From NCBI GenBank assembly GCA_004294195.1, contig REAQ01000264.1, forward strand, positions 1-14,849: 14,849 nt of DNA, read 5' to 3'. Position 1 is the stretch's first letter. The number at the start of each line of letters is the position of its first letter. Below are positions 1,960-11,641 of this stretch, in pieces. The notes beneath the pieces were generated by a model. The model ran no database searches, had not been told where the DNA came from, and was given only the letters and a program-made list of their open reading frames with translations. The DNA comes from Sphingobacteriales bacterium (lineage in GTDB: Bacteria > Bacteroidota > Bacteroidia > Chitinophagales > Chitinophagaceae). A program made the position numbers and the translations under genes.

Positions 1960-2238
1960 TTACGCGTTAGGGGGAGGCGTATTGATGTCATCGGCCTGCC
2001 TGGAGAGAAAGTGTTCTGAAAAGCAGCGCCCAAGGGGCTGTACAGTGATGTCAGAAAGCTGCACCAATTGGTGGATCAGGTCATTATCCTGATTAACCAC
2101 TTCTTTTCCCAGGGGTGAATGTACGATCTCTTCCTGAAGTTGATTAGAGCTGAGCAGATTGCCAACCTGGGCAATGGGCAAGAGCGGTATACTGAAGATC
2201 AGCATTAAAAATACCGCAATGAGTGACTTTCTGCCCAT
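1960..2238 (-). CDS. Small exported protein of unknown function (92 aa)
   Basis: I do not recognise a named family. The protein opens with MGRKS and a hydrophobic run to about residue 23 (IAVFLMLIFSIPLLPIA), a typical signal peptide or single membrane anchor. It is followed by VGNLLSSNQLQEEIVHS and a polar remainder ending in a proline-rich tail (NTPPPNA). It has one cysteine, near residue 73, and no lipobox. Two things support it as a real gene: the signal-like N-terminus, and its position in the same direction between fabG and the SulP gene with nothing else filling the space. The ATG at 2238 is preceded by GGAC and, 4 bases further up, by TATTTTTA, one mismatch from the TAnnTTTG promoter box; that box is the edge of the palindromic repeat at 2243-2288. 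Its distance to the SulP start is 39 bases. A role linked to anion transport would be a guess from position only. Confidence 0.62.
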   Translation of the reverse strand: MGRKSLIAVFLMLIFSIPLLPIAQVGNLLSSNQLQEEIVHSPLGKEVVNQDNDLIHQLVQLSDITVQPLGRCFSEHFLSRQADDINTPPPNA

Positions 2239-2242
2239 GTCC

Positions 2243-2288
2243 TAAAAATAGCTAATAGCTATTAGCTAATAGCTATTTTTAGTAGCTA
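2243..2288. repeat. Five copies of the palindrome TAGCTA at 7-base spacing, forming an AT-rich hairpin
   Basis: TAGCTA occurs at 2249-2254, 2256-2261, 2263-2268 and 2270-2275, separated by single A, T and A bases, with a fifth copy at 2283-2288. The outer arms TAAAAATAGCTA (2243-2254) and TAGCTATTTTTA (2270-2281) are exact inverted complements. The element fills nearly the whole gap between the fabG stop (2296) and the next start (2238). It could act as a weak bidirectional terminator because each arm ends in a T run. Its left edge also provides a promoter-like TATTTTTA on the minus strand. Confidence 0.85.
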
Positions 2289-2295
2289 TTTTCCG

Positions 2296-3051
2296 TTAAA
2301 TATTCAGGCCGCCACAGGTGCTGATTACCTGCCCGGTGATGTATGAGCTCATGTCTGATGCCAGGAAAAGGGTAGCGTCGGCAACTTCTGATGCGGAGCC
2401 GAATCTTCCCAGCGGAATCTTTTCGAGAAATGCTTTAGACGCTTCACCATCTTTCAAATAGTGGGTCATGTCTGTTTCGATAAATCCTGGTGCAATTGCA
2501 TTGCAGCGAATGTTCCTGCTACCCAGTTCATGTGCCACTGATTTGGTAAAGCCGATGATACCGGCCTTACTGGCCGCATAACTGGATTGCCCACCATTTC
2601 CCCTGATGCCAATGATGGAACTCATATTGATGATGGAACCTTTTTTGGCTTTCATCATGGGCCGCATCACCAGCTTAGTCATATTGAAGACACTCTTCAG
2701 GTTGATGTCCATCACTTCATCCCACTGTTCTGGCGTAACGCGAAGGAGCAGGTTATCTTTTGAAATTCCTGCATTATTTACGCAAACATCCAAACTGCCG
2801 AAGGTGGCCAACACATCGTTGACGAGTTGTTCGCACTGCGCAAAATCGCCGGCATTGCTCTGGTAAGCCTTTGCCTTAACACCCATCGCTTCCATTTTTT
2901 CAACAAGGGCCTTAGCTTTTTCGGCACTGCTGTCACTCACATATGTAAACGCCACATTGGCTCCATGGTCTGCAAATTTCAAAGCGATGGCTTCGCCAAT
3001 TCCGCGGGCGGCTCCTGTTACGATGGCGGTTTTTCCGGCAAGTAATTTCAT
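2296..3051 (-). CDS. fabG: 3-oxoacyl-[acyl-carrier-protein] reductase (SDR family)
   Basis: NADPH-dependent reductase of the fatty-acid elongation cycle, reducing 3-oxoacyl-ACP to 3-hydroxyacyl-ACP in the cytoplasm. It is 251 residues from the ATG at 3051, near the usual 245-250. The Rossmann cofactor loop TGAARGIG is at 12-19 and NNAG at 92-95. The catalytic tetrad Asn117, Ser145, Tyr158 and Lys162 (YAASK) is present, as is the PG of APGF near 188. An in-frame TTG at 3069 would add six residues (MPQTQH), but it is the last three bases of the promoter-like box TATTTTTG, so the ATG is preferred; MKLLAGKTAIVTG is also a normal FabG beginning. The gene lies outside any visible fatty-acid cluster, so a related SDR role (for example in storage polymer or secondary lipid synthesis) cannot be ruled out. 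Confidence 0.9.
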   Translation of the reverse strand: MKLLAGKTAIVTGAARGIGEAIALKFADHGANVAFTYVSDSSAEKAKALVEKMEAMGVKAKAYQSNAGDFAQCEQLVNDVLATFGSLDVCVNNAGISKDNLLLRVTPEQWDEVMDINLKSVFNMTKLVMRPMMKAKKGSIINMSSIIGIRGNGGQSSYAASKAGIIGFTKSVAHELGSRNIRCNAIAPGFIETDMTHYLKDGEASKAFLEKIPLGRFGSASEVADATLFLASDMSSYITGQVISTCGGLNI

Positions 3052-3066
3052 GTGTTGGGTTTGCGG

Positions 3067-3074
3067 CAAAAATA
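3067..3074 (-). promoter_or_regulatory. Candidate -7 promoter box TATTTTTG upstream of fabG
   Basis: Exact match to the Bacteroidota -7 consensus TAnnTTTG, ending 15 bases before the fabG ATG at 3051. No convincing TTG-type -33 element lies at the usual 17-23 base distance, so the call rests on the -7 box and on the same arrangement at other genes in the window. Confidence 0.5.
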
Positions 3075-3099
3075 AGGAGAACCATCAAGAGAATGGTTC
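3068..3099 (-). terminator. Possible intrinsic terminator after the GH3-family gene
   Basis: On the minus strand, GAACCAT pairs exactly with ATGGTTC (plus coordinates 3079-3085 and 3093-3099) around a 7-base loop. A T-rich run, TTATTTTT, follows. It sits about 36 bases past the stop of the GH3-family gene. The stem is only 7 bp and AT-rich, and the T run overlaps the candidate fabG promoter, so termination strength is uncertain. Confidence 0.4.
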
Positions 3100-3134
3100 A
3101 TAAAATCGCCGGCCTTTCTGAAGGTCCGAAAAGC

Positions 3135-4646
3135 TCATAGGTTGATTAGCTGTAGAATTTCTTCAATAAAGGTGCGCTCGTTGCTCAACCTTGGAATTTT
3201 ATGCTGACCGCCGAGCTTACCTTTTTGTTTCAGCCATTTAGCGAAGTCTCCTTTTTGCAGGGTATGGATGATGGGCATCCGAAGCGCTATATCTTTATGC
3301 CGTTTGGCTTCGTAGTCGCTGTTCAGCGATTTGAGCGCATGGTCTAGCTCATATGTAAAATGATCCAACCGCTCCGGCTTTTTCTCAAACTCAATCAGCC
3401 ATTCATGTCCGCCATTGGTATGATCCCCGAAATAGATTGGTGCGGCAGAATAGTCATTTACCACGGTTCCGGTTTGTTCACAGGCTATCGCGATGGCGCG
3501 GTCCGCATTTTCTACCATCAGCTCCTCACCAAACGCGTTGATGAAATGTTTCACTCTCCCACTTACTTTAATCCTGAAAGGCTGTAAAGATGTAAACTGA
3601 ATGGTGTCTCCTACGCAATAGCGCCACAGTCCGCCGTTGGTACTGATGACCAGCGCATAATGTTTGCCGAGCTCAACATCCTGCAGACCGATGGTAAGAG
3701 GCTCTTCCTTGCCATATTCTTCCAGCGGCATGAACTCCATAAAAATACCATGGTCCGTAAACAGCAACATGCCATCGGAATCAGGACTGTCTTGCGCAGC
3801 AAAAAATCCTTCACTGGCATTGTACATCTCCAGGAAGTTCATTTTCTTTCCCATCAACTTTTCAAAATGCTCACGGTAAGGCACAAACGAAACACCGCCA
3901 TGGAGGTATAGTTCCAATTGGGGCCATACTTCTGCGATACTTGATTTGCCGGTGATTTCAAGAATGCGCCGCAGCAACACGAGGGTCCAGGTTGGCACTC
4001 CCGATATCGACGTAACATTTTCATGAATGGTATGCTGTGCAAGTTTTTCGATTTTTGATTCCCACTCATCCATCAGTGCGATGCTCAACTCTGGTGTCCT
4101 GATCCAGGATCCCCAGAAGGGTGTATTCTGCAGCAACACGGCACTGAGATCTCCGTAGTGGGTTTCATCATTGATACGGTTGACGGTGTGGCTACCGCCG
4201 ATCACGAGGCCCTTGCCCGTCAGTAGGTCAGAAAAGGGATTGAAATTGTAATACATGGTCACCACGTCTTTTGCGGCCCTGTAGTGGCCGTCTTCAAGAC
4301 TTTCATTGCTGACCGGAATGAACTTGGATTTTTCTGAGGTGGTACCACTGCTCTTCGCGAACCAATTGATGGGTGTGTTCCACAACAGGTTCTGCTCGCC
4401 TTCCATCAAGCGGAGGATGTACGGCTTCAGATCGTCATACTCATGAATGGGGATCGCCTTTTTGAAAGAGCGGATATTGTATAACGATGAGAACTGGTAT
4501 TTCCGTCCAAACTCCGTGTATTGTGCAGAGGTCACCAGGTCCTGGAGCACTTCCCTTTGCGCGGCAACGGGATTTTGCGTCCAGCCTTCAATGCGCCACA
4601 TTCGCATGCGCGCCAATCTTGATATGGCGGGTGAAAGGAGCCTCAT
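3135..4646 (-). CDS. GH3-family acyl-acid amido synthetase-like protein
   Basis: Member of the ANL adenylating superfamily related to plant GH3 proteins, which adenylate a carboxylic acid and join it to an amino acid. In bacteria the substrate is generally unknown. From the ATG at 4646 it has 503 residues, normal for the bacterial branch. The nucleotide-binding motif SSGTTSEKSK starts at about 99, EMYNASEGFFA is near 274-284, GLWRYCVGDTI near 339-349 and the hinge-like GRVKHFINAFGEEL near 364. An in-frame TTG at 4655 would add three residues, but it lies within TATCTTG, a promoter-like string one base short of TAnnTTTG, so the ATG is preferred. MRLLSPAISRLARMRMWRIE also fits the usual N-terminus. 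It lies between lptB and fabG on the same strand. A lipid or envelope substrate is a guess from these neighbours. An unusual C-rich/G-rich repeat lies directly upstream. Confidence 0.88.
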   Translation of the reverse strand: MRLLSPAISRLARMRMWRIEGWTQNPVAAQREVLQDLVTSAQYTEFGRKYQFSSLYNIRSFKKAIPIHEYDDLKPYILRLMEGEQNLLWNTPINWFAKSSGTTSEKSKFIPVSNESLEDGHYRAAKDVVTMYYNFNPFSDLLTGKGLVIGGSHTVNRINDETHYGDLSAVLLQNTPFWGSWIRTPELSIALMDEWESKIEKLAQHTIHENVTSISGVPTWTLVLLRRILEITGKSSIAEVWPQLELYLHGGVSFVPYREHFEKLMGKKMNFLEMYNASEGFFAAQDSPDSDGMLLFTDHGIFMEFMPLEEYGKEEPLTIGLQDVELGKHYALVISTNGGLWRYCVGDTIQFTSLQPFRIKVSGRVKHFINAFGEELMVENADRAIAIACEQTGTVVNDYSAAPIYFGDHTNGGHEWLIEFEKKPERLDHFTYELDHALKSLNSDYEAKRHKDIALRMPIIHTLQKGDFAKWLKQKGKLGGQHKIPRLSNERTFIEEILQLINL

Positions 4647-4671
4647 TCCGGGCAAGATAGCGAAATATGAG

Positions 4672-4757
4672 TTAGGGGAAGGGTTTAGGGGAAGGGTTTA
4701 GGAGAAGGGTTTAGGCTATAACCTCCCTAAACACTCCCCCTAAACACTCACCCTAAA
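4672..4757. repeat. Inverted array of 13-base repeats with G-quadruplex-forming runs
   Basis: The left half has tandem 13-base units of type TTTAGGGGAAGGG at 4672-4683 (first base missing), 4684-4696 and 4697-4709, plus a partial unit at 4710-4715. After a 6-base centre CTATAA (4716-4721), the right half carries the complementary type, CCCTAAACACTCC at 4725-4737, CCCTAAACACTCA at 4738-4750 and partial CCCTAAA at 4751-4757. The halves pair imperfectly into a long hairpin. The plus strand at 4675-4696 reads GGGG-AA-GGG-TTTA-GGGG-AA-GGG, a textbook four-tract quadruplex pattern. The array fills the gap between the lptB stop and the next start, and its last unit includes the lptB stop codon (4753-4755). 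Confidence 0.9.
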
Positions 4758-5526
4758 AACCCGCCCTATTCTTCGCTTCCTCGTGCAGATAGTCCTTCCG
4801 CTTCAGCTCAAAATTACGGCCGAGGTAAAGGCGGCGCACCTGCTCGTCTTCCGCAAGCTCTTCGGCCGTGCCATGCTTGAAGATCTTGCCTTCAATAAGG
4901 AGATAGGCCCTGTCACAGATAGACAGGGTTTCGTTTACGTTATGGTCAGTGATCAGGATGCCGATATTCTTGTATTTAAGGCGGGCCACCACCGTCTGGA
5001 TATCCTCCACCGCGATGGGATCCACACCTGCAAAGGGTTCATCCAGCAGGATGAAGCTGGGATTAACGGCCAGGGCCCGCGCGATCTCGGTTCGCCGGCG
5101 TTCACCACCACTCAGGGAGTCTCCATTGTTCTTGCGCACATGCGTGAGGCGGAACTCGTTCAAAAGCTCCTCCACCTTATCTTTCCGCTCCTTGCGGGAG
5201 AGGTTGGTCATCTCCAGTACAGACATGATGTTATCTTCCACCGTCAGCTTGCGGAATACCGATGCCTCCTGCGGTAAGTAGCCAATGCCCATTTGCGCCC
5301 TTTTGTACATGGGCAAGGATGTGATCTTGTCTTCATTCAGGTACACTTCGCCCTCGTCAGGCTTGATCAGGCCTACCACCATGTAGAAAGTGGTGGTCTT
5401 GCCTGCTCCATTTGGCCCCAGAAGACCTACAATTTCACCTTGTTTAACGTTGACGGAGACCTTGTTGACCACGGTTCTGTTGCGGTAAACCTTTACCAGG
5501 TCATGCGTGTGTATAATGAGACTCAT
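4753..5526 (-). CDS. lptB: LPS export ABC transporter ATP-binding protein
   Basis: Cytoplasmic ATPase of the LptB2FG complex that extracts lipopolysaccharide from the inner membrane and drives it across the periplasm. It has 257 residues from the ATG at 5526 ([14 protein letters not shown]). All ABC motifs are present: Walker A GPNGAGKT at 37-44, Q-loop Gln86 in YLPQEASVF, signature LSGGE at 138-142, Walker B ILLDEP ending at 164 with Glu163, and switch His195 in [19 protein letters not shown] and the [11 protein letters not shown] stretch are typical of LptB rather than other ABC ATPases. The frame is open to 5763, but the extra 79 residues run into metF on the other strand, so ATG 5526 is chosen; a -7 box lies 11 bases before it. 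The tail after LGRNF is longer than in the E. coli protein. The stop codon lies inside the 13-base repeat array. Confidence 0.95.
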
Positions 5527-5537
5527 GCGTTGTGGAA

Positions 5538-5545
5538 CAAAAATA
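5538..5545 (-). promoter_or_regulatory. Candidate -7 promoter box TATTTTTG upstream of lptB
   Basis: Exact TAnnTTTG match, ending 11 bases before the lptB ATG. A TTG lies 14 bases further upstream, shorter than the usual spacing to a -33 element. It implies a leader of only a few bases. Confidence 0.55.
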
Positions 5546-5590
5546 CAGAACTCTGCCTGCAATTCCCCTTCTTCCCGATCCTTTAACAGA

Positions 5591-5622
5591 TTTGCTGCAC
5601 AAGGCTTTTCTAACTTACTTTG
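5591..5622 (+). promoter_or_regulatory. Candidate metF promoter (TTTG, 20 bases, TTACTTTG)
   Basis: TTTG at 5591-5594 and TTACTTTG at 5615-5622 resemble the Bacteroidota -33 and -7 elements with good spacing; the -7 box is one step off consensus (TAnTTTG). An AAGGAAG ribosome-binding sequence at 5635-5641 ends 10 bases before the metF ATG. Unlike the other boxes in this window, it leaves a leader of about 25 bases. Confidence 0.45.
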
Positions 5623-5651
5623 CACCCAGTTTATAAGGAAGTCATCTACAC

Positions 5652-6605
5652 ATGAAAGTAATCGAGCATATCCAGCAGGCAAAAGATACCCTGATCTCTT
5701 TTGAAATTTTGCCCCCTTTGAAAGGCAAAAGTATTCAGTCCATATATGACCATCTTGATCCACTGATGGAATTCAAGCCTTCGTTCATTAATGTAACCTA
5801 CCACCGCAGTGAACAGGTCTTTAAAAAAAAGGCCGATGGTTCCTTTGAAAAAGTGGAAGTACGTAAGCGCCCAGGTACCGTTGGTATCTGCGCGGCTCTG
5901 ATGAACCATTACCATATTGACACCGTACCCCACCTGATTTGCGGCGGTTTCAACAAACGAGAAACAGAAGATGCCCTCATTGATCTTCATTTTCTCGGGG
6001 TAGATAATGTACTCGTTCTCCGTGGTGATGCCGCCAAGAACGAAACCTTCTTTGAACCAGAGACTAACGGTAACGCATACGCGATTGATTTGCTGAAGCA
6101 GGTGATGGACCTCAACCAGGGTGTATACCTGGAAGATGATATCCGTGAAGGCTTCCGCACGAACTTCTGCATTGGCGTGGCAGGCTATCCGGAGAAACAT
6201 TTTGAAGCCCCCAATCTGCAAACGGATCTGGCCTATGTGAAAGCCAAGGTGGATGCAGGTGCGGAATACATCGTGACACAGATGTTCTTCGATAATCAAA
6301 AGTACTTTGCATTTATGCAGGCCTGCAGAGATGCAGGTATCAACATTCCCATCATCCCCGGACTGAAGCCCATCACCAATAAGAAACAACTGGCTGTAAT
6401 CCCGCGCACCTTCCATGTAGACATTCCTACAGAACTCAGCCTGGAGATCATGAAATGCAAAGTTGATGCCGATGTGGAGAAGGTAGGTATTGAGTGGTTG
6501 GTGGAGCAATCAAAAGAACTGAAGAAAGCTGGTGTACCAGTACTTCACTACTACACGCTCGGAAAGCCTCGCGTAATCCGCGATTCTGTTCGTCAGTTAT
6601 TTTAA
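5652..6605 (+). CDS. metF: 5,10-methylenetetrahydrofolate reductase
   Basis: Flavoenzyme that reduces 5,10-methylene-tetrahydrofolate to 5-methyl-tetrahydrofolate, the methyl donor for methionine synthesis. The TIM-barrel protein has 317 residues, a normal length. Glu18 in SFEILPP matches the catalytic Glu of the family. LVLRGDAA (Asp126) is the flavin/folate-binding loop. GVAGYPEKH at 175-183, TQMFFDN at 209-215 and PGLKPI at 236-241 are also characteristic. The gene is divergent from lptB across 125 bases and converges on the foldase gene, sharing TTAA at 6602-6605 as its stop region. I see no SAM or cobalamin riboswitch in the short leader. Confidence 0.96.
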
Positions 6606-8557
6606 TGCTTAAGGGTGTTTAACACCTGAGTGAAGGTAGCATTGTTGACTAATACAGGATATTGCTTGCGCAACCCATCGATCCACCTTTCTTCCAGAAT
6701 AGTCTGGTAATCATTCACTACCTGTACCCTTGCGTCTTGAAAACTTTTGGGTGAGGGCTTGGGATAGGTCTTGATGATGTAGGCGAAGGTGGCCGACTGA
6801 TCTTCGCGGTTAACCGTTACCGTTGTAGCCGTGTTATTTTTCATGGGTGCATTTTCAGGTTGAATGAGCTTCCATTCCATCCTATTGCTGTCTGCCATGA
6901 TCCTGCCCCCGGAAGTTTCCATCAGTTGACGCCACCCACCCGGATTTTTCATGATTGTATTTCTTGTATTTGACGCTGTTAGAGAATCAGATGCTGAGAT
7001 CATGATCACATCAGCACTTTTGCCCCATTGGTATTTTGATTTATTGCTGTTGTAATAGCTGCGCAGTTCAGCAGTGTCTGTAGCAGCTTTGCTCCAGACC
7101 TTCCGTTCCATTGCTTCAAACAACATATTGCCTTCCATGAATTCGGTGATTTGCGCACGGAATGCCGGATTGTAGGAAGTCATGTGCGCGCGGTAATATT
7201 CTGAACTACTTGCGTTTTTGAAGTCATTCCACAGCGCTTCATATTCCTCCTGCGTGCTATGGTGTACCCTGGATTGTACGTAGCCCAGCCAATCTGTTGT
7301 GACGAGGTTCCTTTCAGGGAACTTCAGAAGAATCGTCTGCTCATTGATGAAGGTGGAAAACGCTTTACTACCTTTCAATGCACTATCCGTAAATCGAAAC
7401 AATTCTCGCAGATCTGTCACCGCAACTTTCATACCGGTGATCTGTACTGTATTTTGTGCAAACACTTTTCGCGGGATATTTGCCCTTGCATCTCTTGCAA
7501 GTGCATCGTTCCAGGTGGTGCCTTTGAAACTGTTGGCATCGGGAAGGGTTTGCTGGAGCCGCTTGATGATATGAAAGCCCATCGTGGTTTCAAATGGAGG
7601 AGCGATCTGTCCATCCTTACTGAGGGCAAAAAGTTTTTCTTCAAAAGCCGGATCGTATGTTCCCACAGACAAAGGAGGGAGTAGACCGCCGTTGGGTGCT
7701 GTGGCTGCGTCAAAGCTGAAACTGCGGGCCAGAGCTTCAAAGGACGCACCTTTTAGCAAAGCCTGGTAAAGGGAGTCGGCACGTTTCTGTGCGGCCAAAT
7801 TTGCAGCCGTACCTGCCTCCTGGTCATAGGCGATGAGGATCTGTTGCGCTTGAATGATACCAGTTGCCAGCCGTTCACCGGTCTGTTTAAAAATATGATA
7901 TCCTTTATCTGATGCAAATGGTTTGGAAATGCCATTTGCCGATAAAGCATAGGCTTCATTTTCGAGGGAATAGGGGAGTGTGAAGACGGTAATGTATCCG
8001 AGATCTCCACGGTTAATCTTAACCGATGAATCGGAGGAAAATTCCAACGCCACTTTCCTGAAGTCTTCACCTGCAGCCAGTTTAGCATAGGCTTTTTCAG
8101 CTTTCGCTTTTGCCCTTTCCATGTCTGCTGGTGAGATGATAACATCGATCTGTGGATAAAACGCAAACTCTTCTTTATAGGGAATAAGGATATGAGAGAT
8201 GCGGATCTCTTTGGTGGCTCGCTGTTTAACTTCCCATATCATCTTTTCCTGCAGCGCTGAGTCAAACATGAACTGGTCCTCGATCTGTTTTCTGAACGCT
8301 GCAATGTCTTCCAGCTTGTAGACGAGGGTGTCAAGCTTCATATTGTAAGCGTCTTGCACCTTCAGTTTGAAACGAGTGTACAGATCCAGGTAGTTGCGAA
8401 CAGAAATCTCTGTGACGGTACCGGGTTCCACATTCTTTTTGAACGCGCGGATGAACTCATCGGCACTCACCTGTTGGTTCCCGTAAGTGAATAAGGTTTG
8501 TGTCTGCGCGGCACAGGTCAACATCAGTGCCCCAGTGATGATCAGTATGGTCTTCAT
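6602..8557 (-). CDS. Periplasmic peptidyl-prolyl cis-trans isomerase with two parvulin domains (SurA/PrsA-like)
   Basis: Predicted exported foldase of 651 residues. MKTILIITGALMLTCAAQ is a signal peptide. The Cys at 15 follows LT rather than a good lipobox, so soluble periplasmic export is more likely than lipidation. After an N-terminal helical part (about 30-115), a first rotamase domain spans about 117-229 (ISHILIPY, GDLGYIT, GYHIFKQ). A second spans about 234-336 (AQQILIAY, NGGLLPPLSVG, GFHIIKR). The C-terminal 300 residues match no domain I can name. Two parvulin domains after a helical chaperone part recall SurA, although SurA is shorter and ends in a helix that packs back on the N-domain. 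The gene starts 3 bases after the stop of the TlpA-like gene, so the two are one operon, probably for folding and redox care of envelope proteins. Its stop codon overlaps that of metF. Confidence 0.88.
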   Translation of the reverse strand: MKTILIITGALMLTCAAQTQTLFTYGNQQVSADEFIRAFKKNVEPGTVTEISVRNYLDLYTRFKLKVQDAYNMKLDTLVYKLEDIAAFRKQIEDQFMFDSALQEKMIWEVKQRATKEIRISHILIPYKEEFAFYPQIDVIISPADMERAKAKAEKAYAKLAAGEDFRKVALEFSSDSSVKINRGDLGYITVFTLPYSLENEAYALSANGISKPFASDKGYHIFKQTGERLATGIIQAQQILIAYDQEAGTAANLAAQKRADSLYQALLKGASFEALARSFSFDAATAPNGGLLPPLSVGTYDPAFEEKLFALSKDGQIAPPFETTMGFHIIKRLQQTLPDANSFKGTTWNDALARDARANIPRKVFAQNTVQITGMKVAVTDLRELFRFTDSALKGSKAFSTFINEQTILLKFPERNLVTTDWLGYVQSRVHHSTQEEYEALWNDFKNASSSEYYRAHMTSYNPAFRAQITEFMEGNMLFEAMERKVWSKAATDTAELRSYYNSNKSKYQWGKSADVIMISASDSLTASNTRNTIMKNPGGWRQLMETSGGRIMADSNRMEWKLIQPENAPMKNNTATTVTVNREDQSATFAYIIKTYPKPSPKSFQDARVQVVNDYQTILEERWIDGLRKQYPVLVNNATFTQVLNTLKH

Positions 8558-8560
8558 GGA

Positions 8561-10000
8561 TTATTTAGTACCTGATGACTTTATTTTATGGTCGAGGAAA
8601 TCATTGAGTTGCTCGTAACTCAGTTTTTTCGCCAGGATTTTTTTGTCGGCGTCAAGCAGATACAGCATCGGTGTCTGGTACACGTCGTACAACTGCCTGA
8701 AGCCCGGCTGACTGGCCTGAATTTCGGCATCCTTCATTTCCTTGGTTTGATAAACGTGAATCCAGTCTTTCAAATTGTGCTCTTTGATGAAAGTCAGCCA
8801 CTTGTCTTTCCCGCCATCGGTCATCACACCATAGATCCTGACACCCATGGCCTTCCACTTGGCGTGATAGAAAGAATCCAGCTTGGGCACTTCCACCTGG
8901 CAGTGGCTGCAGGTGGGATCCCAGAAGCAAACCACGGTATAGCTGCTCTTTACGTCATACAGATTGGTCTTTTTCCCGGTAGTATCCACCATGTTCAGGT
9001 TGGCCCCTTTTTCACCCACCACATTGGCCATCAGGCTGTAACCACGATCGAAGATGAACTTCTTATATTTCTCCGTCATCCAAGCATCGGCCTCACCAGC
9101 GATGAAGTATTTCTGGAAGAGATGCACAAAAACAGCATCCTGACCCATGTATTTCGGGTTCACATATTTTTCCGTGAGCGTTGCCAAAATATACTGCCGC
9201 ATGTCTTTGCTGCTGCGGGCGGCGAACATCATCTCATCGGCTTCAAGGATCAATGAATCCGCCTGTTGAGGAAGCACCTCGTCAAAATACCGGTTGAACC
9301 TGGGCTGGAACACGGGCGTGCGAAGCAATCGCGTATCACTCATATTCACGCCATCCCAGTAATGTGATTTATAAAATTGATAGATAAGGGCCGAGTCTTT
9401 GTAGGTCTCCGGGATCACGGGATCATTGAGGAGTTTGAACACCGCAGAAAGTAAGTGGTCAGGATTGGTTTTAGTGAAATCCTGGCGGTAGTTTTTTAAC
9501 TGAAGATTTTTGTCTTTCAACTGCGCCACGATCTTTGCGGAATCAGCCTTGGTAGGCGCTTTGGCGTAGGACTTTTGCAGGTTGTTCATTTCCCCGCCCA
9601 CCACGGTGGTGAAATCCTGGTAGGATTTGAAGAGCTGGTTTTCTTTGGAGCCGGTGAACTTCACGGATCGCAACAGGTCTGCCGAATCAGCGGATACCGA
9701 GAAACGCTGTTCCTTATCGATCACCAATTCAAAATAGCCGTCCTTATTGGGAAATGCGATCATGTAGATGCCACCCGGCAGTTTTTCCTTTCCGGAAAAA
9801 ACGGCTTCGCTGTTTGTATTGATGGCCACAGAATCTACGAGGGCCTGCTTCTGGCCATAATAATGGGCAAGGAAGAGATAGCCTTTGGTGAAGGGCTTGA
9901 GGGTAACCTTGATCTCATAGCCGGTTTGGGCAAATACGGAAACGCTAAAGACCAGGCCCAGAAAAGCAAAAATGGTTTTTCGATGCATAAGGGAAAGCAT
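8561..10000 (-). CDS. TlpA-like thiol-disulfide oxidoreductase with N-terminal DUF4369-like domain
   Basis: Exported thioredoxin-fold protein of 479 residues (475 from the second ATG at 9988). The signal peptide is MHRKTIFAFLGLVFSVSVFAQ. Residues about 27-120 resemble the beta-rich DUF4369 domain common before thioredoxins in Bacteroidota. A helical middle follows to about 325 and may correspond to DUF5106. The redoxin domain from about 330 has the active site WDPTCSHC (Cys364, Cys367) and the cis-proline loop YQTPMLYLLD (Pro444). Such proteins reduce or isomerise disulfides in the periplasm. Two starts are possible: ATG 10000 is 5 bases from a -7 box, while ATG 9988 gives the cleaner signal peptide. 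The gene is the first of an operon with the foldase gene. Confidence 0.88.
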   Translation of the reverse strand: MLSLMHRKTIFAFLGLVFSVSVFAQTGYEIKVTLKPFTKGYLFLAHYYGQKQALVDSVAINTNSEAVFSGKEKLPGGIYMIAFPNKDGYFELVIDKEQRFSVSADSADLLRSVKFTGSKENQLFKSYQDFTTVVGGEMNNLQKSYAKAPTKADSAKIVAQLKDKNLQLKNYRQDFTKTNPDHLLSAVFKLLNDPVIPETYKDSALIYQFYKSHYWDGVNMSDTRLLRTPVFQPRFNRYFDEVLPQQADSLILEADEMMFAARSSKDMRQYILATLTEKYVNPKYMGQDAVFVHLFQKYFIAGEADAWMTEKYKKFIFDRGYSLMANVVGEKGANLNMVDTTGKKTNLYDVKSSYTVVCFWDPTCSHCQVEVPKLDSFYHAKWKAMGVRIYGVMTDGGKDKWLTFIKEHNLKDWIHVYQTKEMKDAEIQASQPGFRQLYDVYQTPMLYLLDADKKILAKKLSYEQLNDFLDHKIKSSGTK

Positions 10001-10005
10001 TGCAG

Positions 10006-10013
10006 CAAAAGTA
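10006..10013 (-). promoter_or_regulatory. Candidate -7 promoter box TACTTTTG of the TlpA-foldase operon
   Basis: Exact TAnnTTTG match, ending 5 bases before ATG 10000 and 17 before ATG 9988. No clear -33 TTG lies at standard spacing. If transcription starts about 5-8 bases downstream, the mRNA would start at or next to the first ATG, which makes 9988 the safer start. Confidence 0.55.
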
Positions 10014-10061
10014 ATTTAAAAGCATTTCACATTTTGTTAATCCATTTCGTTTCCTGCGGGG

Positions 10062-10069
10062 TAAATTTG
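10062..10069 (+). promoter_or_regulatory. Candidate -7 promoter box TAAATTTG upstream of rlmD
   Basis: Exact TAnnTTTG match, ending 4 bases before the rlmD ATG at 10074. A TTTG at 10033-10036 lies 25 bases upstream, slightly long for a -33 element. A start point 5-8 bases downstream would coincide with the ATG, giving a leaderless mRNA. Confidence 0.5.
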
Positions 10070-10073
10070 CCGG

Positions 10074-11477
10074 ATGCGCAACAGGAAACAAACGGTGCTT
10101 ACACAGGTGGAGGTGACGGACTATGCGGCGGAGGGGAAGGCCCTGGCACGTGTTGACGGGAAAGTGATCTTCATCCAGGGTGCGGTGCCGGGCGATGTGG
10201 TGGATGTGAAATTGTTAAAGAGCAAGAAAGACTGGGCCGAGGGCCAGCTGCTGCAGATCCATAAACCTTCGGAAAAGCGGGTGCAGCCTTTCTGCCAGCA
10301 CTTTGGCGTTTGCGGGGGATGCAAGTGGCAGATGATCCCCTATGAAGAACAGCTGACATTCAAAAACAGAGAGGTGGCCGAGCACTTGCGGCGGATCGGA
10401 AAAGTGGAGCTGCCGCCCATGGAGCCCATCTTCGGCGCAGCCAAAACGCAGTTTTACCGCAACAAGCTGGAGTATACTTTTTCCAGCCGCAAATACCTCA
10501 CGGATGCTGAGTTCAGGGCCAACGGTCCGTCTGACCAGCCCGCACTTGGATATCACATCCCGAAATGGTTTGATAAAGTCATCGATATCCATACTTGTTA
10601 CTTGCAGGAAGAACCGTCTAACGGACTAAGGGATAAGGTGAAAGAGATAGGATTAAGGGAAGGGTTCAGTTTTTACGATATCAGGGCACACAAAGGCTTT
10701 TTGCGCAACCTGGTGATCCGTTATGCGAACACGGGTGAGCTGATGGTGAACCTGGTGGTGGGCGAGGAAGACAAGGTGGCGTTGAAAATTATTTTCGATG
10801 AACTACTTGCTGCATTTCCGCAGATCACTACGTTGATCTATACCGTTAATCACAAGGTGAACGATTCTATTCACGATCTTGAACCGGTTACCTGGTATGG
10901 AAAAGGATATATCGAGGAGAAGCTGGATCATTATGTGTTTAAAATTGGTCCCAAAAGTTTCTTCCAGACCAATACGGGCCAGGGTTTGGAGCTCTACCGC
11001 ATCACGCGCGAGTTTGCCGGGCTCACAGGAAATGAAGTGTTGTATGATTTGTATTGTGGCACGGGAAGCATCGGTATTTTTTGCAGTGAGCAGGCGAAGA
11101 AGGTGATTGGCGTGGAAGTGATTGGTGAGGCGGTGGAAGATGCAAAGATCAATGCTGCAACCAACGGCGTGAACCATGCATCCTTTTTCCCGGGCGATGT
11201 GAGTGAGGTGTGTACCGATGCATTTTTCGCGGAGCATGGAAGACCGGACGTGGTGATCACCGATCCTCCCAGGGCAGGCATGCATGAGAAATTGGTTCGT
11301 ACCTTGCTGGAGATTGCGGCGCCGAGGGTGGTGTATGTGAGTTGTAATCCGGCTACACAGGCGAGGGATCTGCAGTTGTTGGATGAAAAATATAGAGTGA
11401 CGAGGATAAGGCCGGTGGATATGTTTCCGCATACGCACCATATTGAGAATGTCATTCTTTTGGAGCTGAGAAGCTGA
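10074..11477 (+). CDS. rlmD: 23S rRNA (uracil-C5)-methyltransferase RlmD (TrmA/RumA family)
   Basis: SAM-dependent methyltransferase making m5U in 23S rRNA (U1939 in E. coli numbering). It has 467 residues. An N-terminal TRAM domain (about 5-65) is followed by the iron-sulfur motif Cys74-x5-Cys80-x2-Cys83, with a likely fourth ligand Cys175. The SAM-binding motif is YDLYCGTGSIG (324-334), FFQTN is at 296-300, DPPRAGM at 397-403 and the catalytic nucleophile Cys424 is in SCNP. The four-Cys cluster favours RlmD over TrmA, but Bacteroidota often carry more than one RumA-type paralogue, so the exact uridine is less certain than the family. It starts 74 bases from the divergent TlpA operon. A long hairpin repeat begins directly after its stop. 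Confidence 0.91.
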   Translation: MRNRKQTVLTQVEVTDYAAEGKALARVDGKVIFIQGAVPGDVVDVKLLKSKKDWAEGQLLQIHKPSEKRVQPFCQHFGVCGGCKWQMIPYEEQLTFKNREVAEHLRRIGKVELPPMEPIFGAAKTQFYRNKLEYTFSSRKYLTDAEFRANGPSDQPALGYHIPKWFDKVIDIHTCYLQEEPSNGLRDKVKEIGLREGFSFYDIRAHKGFLRNLVIRYANTGELMVNLVVGEEDKVALKIIFDELLAAFPQITTLIYTVNHKVNDSIHDLEPVTWYGKGYIEEKLDHYVFKIGPKSFFQTNTGQGLELYRITREFAGLTGNEVLYDLYCGTGSIGIFCSEQAKKVIGVEVIGEAVEDAKINAATNGVNHASFFPGDVSEVCTDAFFAEHGRPDVVITDPPRAGMHEKLVRTLLEIAAPRVVYVSCNPATQARDLQLLDEKYRVTRIRPVDMFPHTHHIENVILLELRS

Positions 11478-11641
11478 TTCAATTAGGCAATTCGGCAATG
11501 TGGCAGTGCGGTAATGTAGGAAGGCGCGCCTTGCGTAGCGGCGCGCCAGCAGTCACTCCGGGTGTTTCTGCGCAGGCCGGCAACGCACGGCCGCGCTTCC
11601 TACATTGCCGCATTACCGCATTGTCAAATTGCCGCATTAAT
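11478..11641. repeat. Long intergenic hairpin with 8-base tandem units in both arms
   Basis: The left arm is made of GGCAATTC, GGCAATGT, GGCAGTGC and GGTAATGT (about 11487-11518) followed by AGGAAG. The right arm (about 11596-11641) is the inverted complement, starting CTTCCTACATTGCCGCATTA and continuing with the same 8-base rhythm. Pairing continues inward with mismatches through a GC-rich core that includes the palindrome GGCGCGCC at 11523-11530 and 11540-11547 on the left and GGCCGGCAACGCACGGCC at 11577-11594 on the right. The loop is around 11550-11574. The element fills nearly all of the 178-base gap between rlmD and the first rhomboid gene. No T run follows, so it is not a standard intrinsic terminator. 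Confidence 0.9.

What the first reader, a model, noticed from the sequence alone, without database searches (positions are those of the whole stretch)
2243..11641. Three gene gaps hold the same kind of structure: inverted repeats whose arms are short tandem repeats, each with a different unit
The spacers at 2243-2288, 4672-4757 and 11478-11641 are each nearly filled by a hairpin whose arms consist of short units in tandem: 7 bases (TAGCTA plus one), 13 bases (TTTAGGGGAAGGG type) and 8 bases (GGCAATGT type). The sequences are unrelated, so this is not one repeat family copied three times; only the architecture is shared. That suggests a process that builds or keeps tandem units in both arms, such as replication slippage on hairpins with template switching, or selection for a strong 3'-end structure in RNA. 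All three follow a gene stop at once (fabG, lptB, rlmD). I know of no named element class that fits.
Basis: partly seen in the sequence, partly recalled or inferred. Interest (0 to 1): 0.72.

Follow-up and report, generated by a model that had tools for sequence, protein, structure and literature searches.

The report
Dispersed hairpins with tandem-repeat arms
The three odd hairpins are members of three unrelated families of short repeats scattered between the genes of this bacterium; related species carry mostly different sets, so the architecture persists while the sequence turns over, much like known REP repeats and with no identified machinery behind it.

Summary
All three gaps contain strong inverted repeats with tandem-unit arms (7, 13 and 8 bp), absent from shuffles. 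They are not local products. Each belongs to its own dispersed family in this genome: at least 22 near-full copies (8-bp), 22 loci (13-bp), 122 overlapping forward hits (7-bp). The families are almost unknown elsewhere: the 8-bp element was found in none of 40 same-genus and 394 other sampled Bacteroidota genomes. The class is general: intergenic arrays have units of 7 or 8 bp in 101 of 124 cases, the species sampled carry mostly different units, and arrays tend to sit within a few bases of stop codons.

The 8-bp family is best resolved. Its arm is a 36-nt module with sharp ends, found alone (16 copies) or as inverted pairs, 19 of them around a fixed 82-nt core, with no target duplication and no co-variation between arms. 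That is REP/REPIN-like copying, not slippage on a hairpin. The 13-bp family does show arm co-variation, so slippage or conversion is not excluded there. The copying machinery is unknown; a Y1 transposase seems not to be required. Closest precedents: REP/REPINs and Xanthomonas GGGAATC heptamer inverted pairs. New variant of a known kind.

The parts
2247..2277 (.). TAGCTA-N array of four hexamers (7-bp family), ends A-N and N-T; with flanking A/T runs it makes the 2242-2282 hairpin; one further TAGCTA at 2283-2288
   Evidence: family ends
4673..4754 (.). 13-bp family element AGGG...CCCT: three TTTAGGGGAAGGG-type units, loop, two to three reverse-complement units; the lptB stop codon (TAG, complement of 4753-4755) overlaps its right end
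11481..11638 (.). 158-nt element of the 8-bp family
11481..11516 (+). 36-nt octamer-periodic arm module, outer to inner
11519..11600 (+). 82-nt core with two homologous inverted hairpins around TGCGTTGC-type loops (homology of the halves read by eye)
11603..11638 (-). second 36-nt arm module, inverted

Best explanation
The three structures are single copies of three independent, lineage-specific families of short dispersed extragenic repeats that behave like REP/REPIN populations. For the 8-bp family the unit is a 36-nt module of about 4.5 octamers with its own position-specific sequence. It occurs alone, or as an inverted pair around an 82-nt core or a mosaic core. Copies arise by duplication to new sites without a target-site duplication, then diverge by point mutation. 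They are retained, or land, between genes, often directly after stop codons, where the hairpin can also act as an mRNA 3' end. Shown for the 8-bp family: dispersal, sharp ends, fixed arm length, no target duplication, lineage restriction in the genomes searched. Shown for the class: gene-end placement. Inferred: active mobility, the enzyme (unknown; possibly a single-strand-acting one), any RNA role, and that the 7- and 13-bp families work the same way.
For: Copies: at least 22 near-full places for the 8-bp element, 22 loci for the 13-bp element, some of them short matches, 122/121 overlapping pattern hits for TAGCTA. Absent from 40 of 40 same-genus genomes (8-bp), 29 of 29 relatives (13-bp), 28 of 29 (7-bp), 394 of 394 other sampled Bacteroidota (8-bp; at most two candidates scored per genome), 393 of 394 (exact 7-bp pattern). 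19 of 19 copies with both core halves have an 82-nt core and ungapped arms. 37 of 38 arm ends stop at nucleotide 38 from the core (L033 has lost one end), information falling from about 1.8 to 0.3 bits. Sixteen solo arms have sharp ends on both sides. TAGCTA arrays: T at outward position 2 in 95 of 101 ends, next base at most 46%. No target duplication of 2-11 bp in 19 copies. The gap after rlmD is 13-60 nt without the element in 26 of 29 relatives, 178 nt here. Placement.
Against: No empty site at base resolution: the nearest relative has 67% RlmD identity. No transposase gene bounded by these ends was noticed, but none was searched for systematically. In the 13-bp family, arms of one element are more alike than arms of different elements (10-21 of 10,000 permutations, n=14) and loops are not conserved. 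Dispersal from one ancestor is not shown for the short 7-bp arrays, whose hexamer number varies 3-5. The fabG gap is no longer than in relatives (57 vs 36-106 nt), so that case is replacement or drift, not simple insertion. The 19 fixed-length copies come largely from places chosen by similarity to the full element; other paired arms enclose cores of 33-104 nt.
Confidence: 0.68

Rival explanations
1. Local growth: replication slippage, with template switching on the hairpin, builds units in both arms at each gap.
For: 7/8-bp bias fits the published idea of a polymerase-length slippage unit (Mrazek 2007, not held, as cited in PMC4679880 and PMC4692102). Arm co-variation in the 13-bp family. Unit counts of 3/4/5 in 17/31/3 TAGCTA arrays. 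The nearest relative, G015, carries unrelated arrays in two of the three orthologous gaps.
Against: Same unit at dozens of loci in one genome and nearly none elsewhere. Fixed arm length, position-specific units, sharp ends and no arm co-variation in the 8-bp family. Symmetric spacers in TAGCTA arrays are not complementary (13 of 54, 16 expected).
Confidence: 0.15
2. They are kept mainly as mRNA 3'-end structures: bidirectional terminators or decay barriers.
For: Very strong folds. Median 2-8 nt to a facing stop; same-genus tandem gaps nearer to the stop in 21 of 24 (p=0.0003); convergent gaps enriched in own (OR 3.8, p=0.004) and same-genus samples (OR 5.4, p=4e-7). 5' arm purine-richer in 34 of 42 families, poorer in 5, tied in 3.
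Against: None of the 16 terminator-like sites of the simple window scan falls on them. Solo arms have no recognised partner within 250 nt. Own tandem gaps nearer to the stop in only 9 of 16 (p=0.80); named relatives 11 of 15 (p=0.12); convergent enrichment p=0.08 in named relatives. Avoidance of promoters alone could give similar placement.
Confidence: 0.12
3. They are ordinary MITEs moved by a DDE transposase.
For: Terminal inverted repeats with a fixed end in the 8-bp family.
Against: No target-site duplication of 2-11 bp in 19 copies. A parent element was not searched for.
Confidence: 0.05

Closest known systems
REP sequences and REPINs (PMC3116915, passages seen; PMC3733652, passages and the genome-distribution section read)
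   Same: High-copy short extragenic repeats; singlets and inverted doublets with fixed spacing that fold into long hairpins; next to the 3' ends of convergent and unidirectional genes; ends that supply stop codons.
   Different: The repeated unit is a direct octamer array, not a stem-loop; no conserved GTAG tag seen; no linked RAYT shown; about ten families (counted by eye) in one genome.
GGGAATC heptamer repeats of Xanthomonas and GGGGA(C/T)T of Nostoc (PMC4692102; sections 10 and 16 and passages read)
   Same: Intergenic heptamer arrays with free positions, commonly four units; 70 and 75 inverted pairs in the two Xanthomonas genomes; close to the upstream gene; under-represented between divergent genes.
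   Different: That paper treats one unit type per genome; here many families, mostly different in the other species sampled, also 8 and 13 bp, and a composite element with a fixed core.
TAACTGA repeats of Beggiatoaceae and some Bacteroidetes (PMC4679880; section 12 and passages read)
   Same: Intergenic heptamer arrays with scattered distribution.
   Different: In the main genome studied they are direct repeats mostly before start codons, with one inverted case.
BrickBuilt MITE of Porphyromonas gingivalis (PMC4596501; abstract and outline seen)
   Same: Bacteroidota intergenic element containing a tandem repeat.
   Different: 23-bp unit flanked by leader and tail with small inverted ends; the arms themselves are not the tandem repeat.

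Membership tests
REP | 20-40 nt, high copy, extragenic | tested here: met
   36-nt module; 79 arm hits in about 0.4 Mb of stretches, a few counted twice
REP | single unit is an imperfect palindrome | tested here: not met
   by inspection the 8-bp module is a direct array and solo copies have no recognised partner; its core halves are hairpins and the TAGCTA unit is itself palindromic
REP | GTAG or CGTC tag | tested here: inconclusive
   the two bases between arm and core vary (TA in about half, else AT, AA, TT and others; rows), so GTAG is not conserved there; no dedicated tag search was run
REP/REPIN | linked RAYT gene | tested here: inconclusive
   one Y1_Tnp in the 75%-complete genome, cut by a contig end; arrays of any kind in flanks of 5 of 30 Y1 loci, with an rc partner in 2; partnered arrays also in G011 and G013 with no Y1_Tnp hit
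REPIN | inverted doublet with fixed spacing | tested here: met
   82-nt core in 19 of 19 copies with both halves; 33 of 55 paired arm hits at that spacing, the rest at others
MITE (DDE) | target-site duplication | tested here: not met
   19 copies of the 8-bp and 14 of the 13-bp family
MITE (DDE) | terminal inverted repeats with fixed end | tested here: met
   37 of 38 ends
MITE (DDE) | parent transposase with the same ends | not tested
   -
Xanthomonas-type heptamer inverted pairs | intergenic 7-bp arrays in inverted pairs near the upstream stop | tested here: met
   at class level; the 8- and 13-bp families differ in period
Xanthomonas-type heptamer inverted pairs | G-quadruplex-forming G tracts | not tested
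   -
Slippage microsatellite | unit number varies between copies | tested here: not met
   8-bp family, 37 of 38 arms end at the same nucleotide; TAGCTA arrays do vary, 3-5 hexamers
Intrinsic terminator | G+C stem with T-run | tested here: not met
   simple consensus scan, no site on the three hairpins

The most novel reading that the evidence does not exclude
A clade-wide class of extragenic repeats keeps a form (units of 7 or 8 bp in inverted arms, 5' arm purine- and G-rich on both strands, placed at stop codons) while its sequence is replaced between species, with about ten families coexisting per genome. They would be spread by a copying activity, not RAYT, that recognises short direct-repeat modules.
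Probability: 0.3. Interest if true: 0.78.

Novelty: new variant of a known kind. Interest (0 to 1): 0.56.

Why it matters
It would show that REP-like populations can be built from direct-repeat modules, that many such populations can share one compact genome, and that they turn over between related species while size, polarity and position stay. It also gives a concrete test bed for the old question of why 7-bp repeats are so common in bacteria: here the best-resolved case, an 8-bp one, looks like a copied element, not a slippage product.

Tried and rejected
Rfam at gathering scores: no match in the window. RAYT as the general mobiliser: array density shows no significant relation to Y1_Tnp count in 22 genomes (Spearman +0.35, p=0.11; Mann-Whitney p=0.21), so a weak link is not excluded; flanks of 30 Y1 loci hold partnered arrays in 2. 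Target duplications: none in 19 copies of the 8-bp and 14 of the 13-bp family. Arm co-variation as proof of hairpin-guided growth: negative for the 8-bp family (3122 of 5000 permutations), positive for the 13-bp family (10-21 of 10,000). A first 13-bp test was confounded by arm length and replaced, which dropped three partial elements of 17. The same test on the CAATTG family (n=4, 6322 of 10,000) and a G015 GAGAG family (n=4, 396 of 10,000) is too small to use. TAGCTA symmetric spacers: no complementarity. Purine polarity is not unique: 360 ordinary intergenic inverted repeats show 226:104, but by A over T (238:94), with G over C 154:129; 70 tandem-armed ones show 53:9, G over C 46:13, or 27:10 by family. 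Paper searches answered; no listed title or abstract start described this multi-family class.
Full report
CHECK. All three hairpins are present where described, fold far better than shuffles (z -6.4, -5.8 and -8.5; the + strand of gap 2 -4.6), and are not chance: in 333 kb of this genome (window plus L035-L054 and L165-L184) 49 intergenic tandem arrays were found, 28 with a reverse-complement partner, against 0 in five shuffles; 10 more arrays lay in called ORFs. The L035-L054 stretches were chosen because they held hits, which inflates the own density; the 20 stretches taken by contig number (77 kb) hold 8 arrays (rows), about 10 per 100 kb. 150 kb of E. coli gave none.

THREE FAMILIES. The 11478-11641 sequence gives 71 match rows in its own genome (both strands of the palindrome count), at least 22 places near full length. 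The 4655-4760 sequence gives 34 rows at 22 loci, some short. TAGCTATTAGCTATTAGCTA with up to 2 mismatches hits 122 forward and 121 reverse, overlapping within arrays. None of 40 other genomes of the genus has the 8-bp element, nor any of 394 other sampled Bacteroidota (at most two candidates per genome scored). The 13-bp one is in 0 of 29 relatives, the 7-bp one in 1 of 29; an exact four-hexamer pattern is in 1 of 394 others, once. In the sample 73 of 190 non-coding pieces resemble another piece, falling into about ten unit families by eye.

THE 8-BP ELEMENT. Nineteen copies with both core halves recognised all have an 82-nt core and ungapped arms. At 37 of 38 ends similarity stops at nucleotide 38 from the core; L033 has lost one end. 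This gives a 158-nt element (window 11481-11638). Arms of one element are no more alike (0.786) than arms of different elements (0.790; 3122 of 5000 permutations reach the observed value). A position-specific model found 79 arm hits in the stretches held (a few counted twice where stretches overlap): 55 paired, 33 of these at the standard spacing and the rest at 33-104 nt, and 24 unpaired. Of the 24 I kept 16 and dropped 8: two duplicates (L046, L053), two poor scores (L003, L263), three with a core or another arm beside them (L033, L051, L388) and one at a contig end (L173). The 16 show the same 36 nt with sharp ends on both sides. Mosaic cores carry a different module with GGCATTG heptamers (L390-L393). 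No target duplication exists at 2-11 bp. In the 29 best same-genus RlmD loci, the gap from rlmD to the next ORF (223-246 aa, rhomboid-sized, identity not checked) is 13-60 nt in 26, while two have a miscalled start and one was unreadable; it is 178 nt here.

THE OTHER TWO. TAGCTA arrays (51): 3, 4 or 5 hexamers in 17, 31 and 3; the second base outside is T at 95 of 101 ends and the next is unconserved; symmetric spacers pair in 13 of 54 against 16 expected. 13-bp elements end at AGGG/CCCT (located by that motif, so only the fall outside it is informative), have variable loops, and their arms co-vary within elements (10, 18 and 21 of 10,000 permutations for 26, 28 and 30 nt; n=14). From the lptB stop to the aligned GH3 start there are 97 nt here and 0-45 nt in 26 of 28 relatives with an aligned GH3; G015 has 113 nt with unrelated arrays and G045 94 nt. 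The fabG gap is 57 nt here and 36-106 nt in 7 readable relatives of 8, with no array seen.

THE CLASS. At a lower threshold, with periods 5-20 searched, intergenic arrays have period 7 or 8 in 49 of 59 (own), 37 of 43 (80 named loci) and 15 of 22 (same-genus stretches), and period 5 or 6 in none. G015, the relative with the closest RlmD, carries about ten families, mostly different from G000; AGGTTGC-type and AAAAGT-type arrays occur in both. Other species carry further units. Arrays face stops: within 10 nt of a facing stop in 32 of 40 (own), 37 of 66 (genus) and 20 of 29 (named), against 10 of 24, 6 of 36 and 3 of 21 for starts. Random placement in the same gaps gives 0.68, 0.34 and 0.45 for stops and 0.48, 0.30 and 0.18 for starts. 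In tandem gaps the array is nearer to the stop in 9 of 16 (own, p=0.80), 21 of 24 (genus, p=0.0003) and 11 of 15 (named, p=0.12). Convergent gaps are enriched in own (p=0.004) and genus samples (p=4e-7), not clearly in named ones (p=0.08); divergent gaps are depleted significantly only in the genus (p=0.012). Among 42 species-by-unit families the 5' arm is purine-richer in 34, poorer in 5, tied in 3; G exceeds C in 27 against 10, a bias ordinary inverted repeats lack (154:129). Genes were called as longest ORFs, so distances to starts are approximate.

MECHANISM. The 8-bp data fit a copied REP/REPIN-like element and speak strongly against ongoing slippage as the source of its arms. The enzyme is unknown: partnered arrays occur in G011 and G013, which have no Y1_Tnp hit, and flanks of Y1 genes hold partnered arrays in 2 of 30 loci. 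Gene-end placement matches REPs, for which distances under 20 bp to the 3' ends and stop codons supplied by the repeat are described (PMC3733652). It may be tolerance, targeting or function; this was not separated.

NOVELTY. REPINs and the Xanthomonas heptamer pairs cover most of the architecture. New here: a direct-repeat module as the repeated unit, many coexisting families, turnover of units between species, and the G-rich 5' arm rule. The nine answered paper searches listed no such class in the rows shown; most subscription papers are not held in that library.

CHANGES ON CHECKING. Mended against the calls: 37 of 38 arm ends instead of all 38, match rows not called places, the kept and dropped solo arms, shared unit types with G015, the G015 gap length, and the tag test set to inconclusive. 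None of these moves the odds.

Noticed in passing
G015 loci L056 (gap after rlmD) and L280 (lptB-GH3 gap): The relative with the closest RlmD holds unrelated tandem arrays (GACGCAGA type; GAGAGCCA and ACCTGCA types) in two of the three orthologous gaps, hinting at gaps that are repeatedly invaded.
   Followed up: partly
L390-L393 (G000 contigs C82, C193, C83, C167): Mosaic 8-bp elements whose core halves are replaced by a module with CGCGAGGCA and GGCATTG heptamers, nesting one family inside another.
   Followed up: partly
window 4753-4755: The lptB stop codon (TAG) lies at the end of the 13-bp element.
   Followed up: partly
L257 (G000:C146), last 340 bases: The only Y1_Tnp gene found in this genome is cut by the contig end; the gap upstream of the neighbouring gene holds pieces of three repeat families side by side.
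   Followed up: partly
intergenic inverted repeats sampled: Tandem-armed hairpins tend to have G-rich 5' arms on both strands, unlike ordinary intergenic inverted repeats, whose 5' arms tend to be A-rich.
   Followed up: partly
G062:C63:9811-9837: One perfect four-hexamer TAGCTA array in a distant Bacteroidota genome, perhaps independent.
   Followed up: no
window 1960-2238: 92-aa ORF without a Pfam match between the sulfate transporter and fabG.
   Followed up: no
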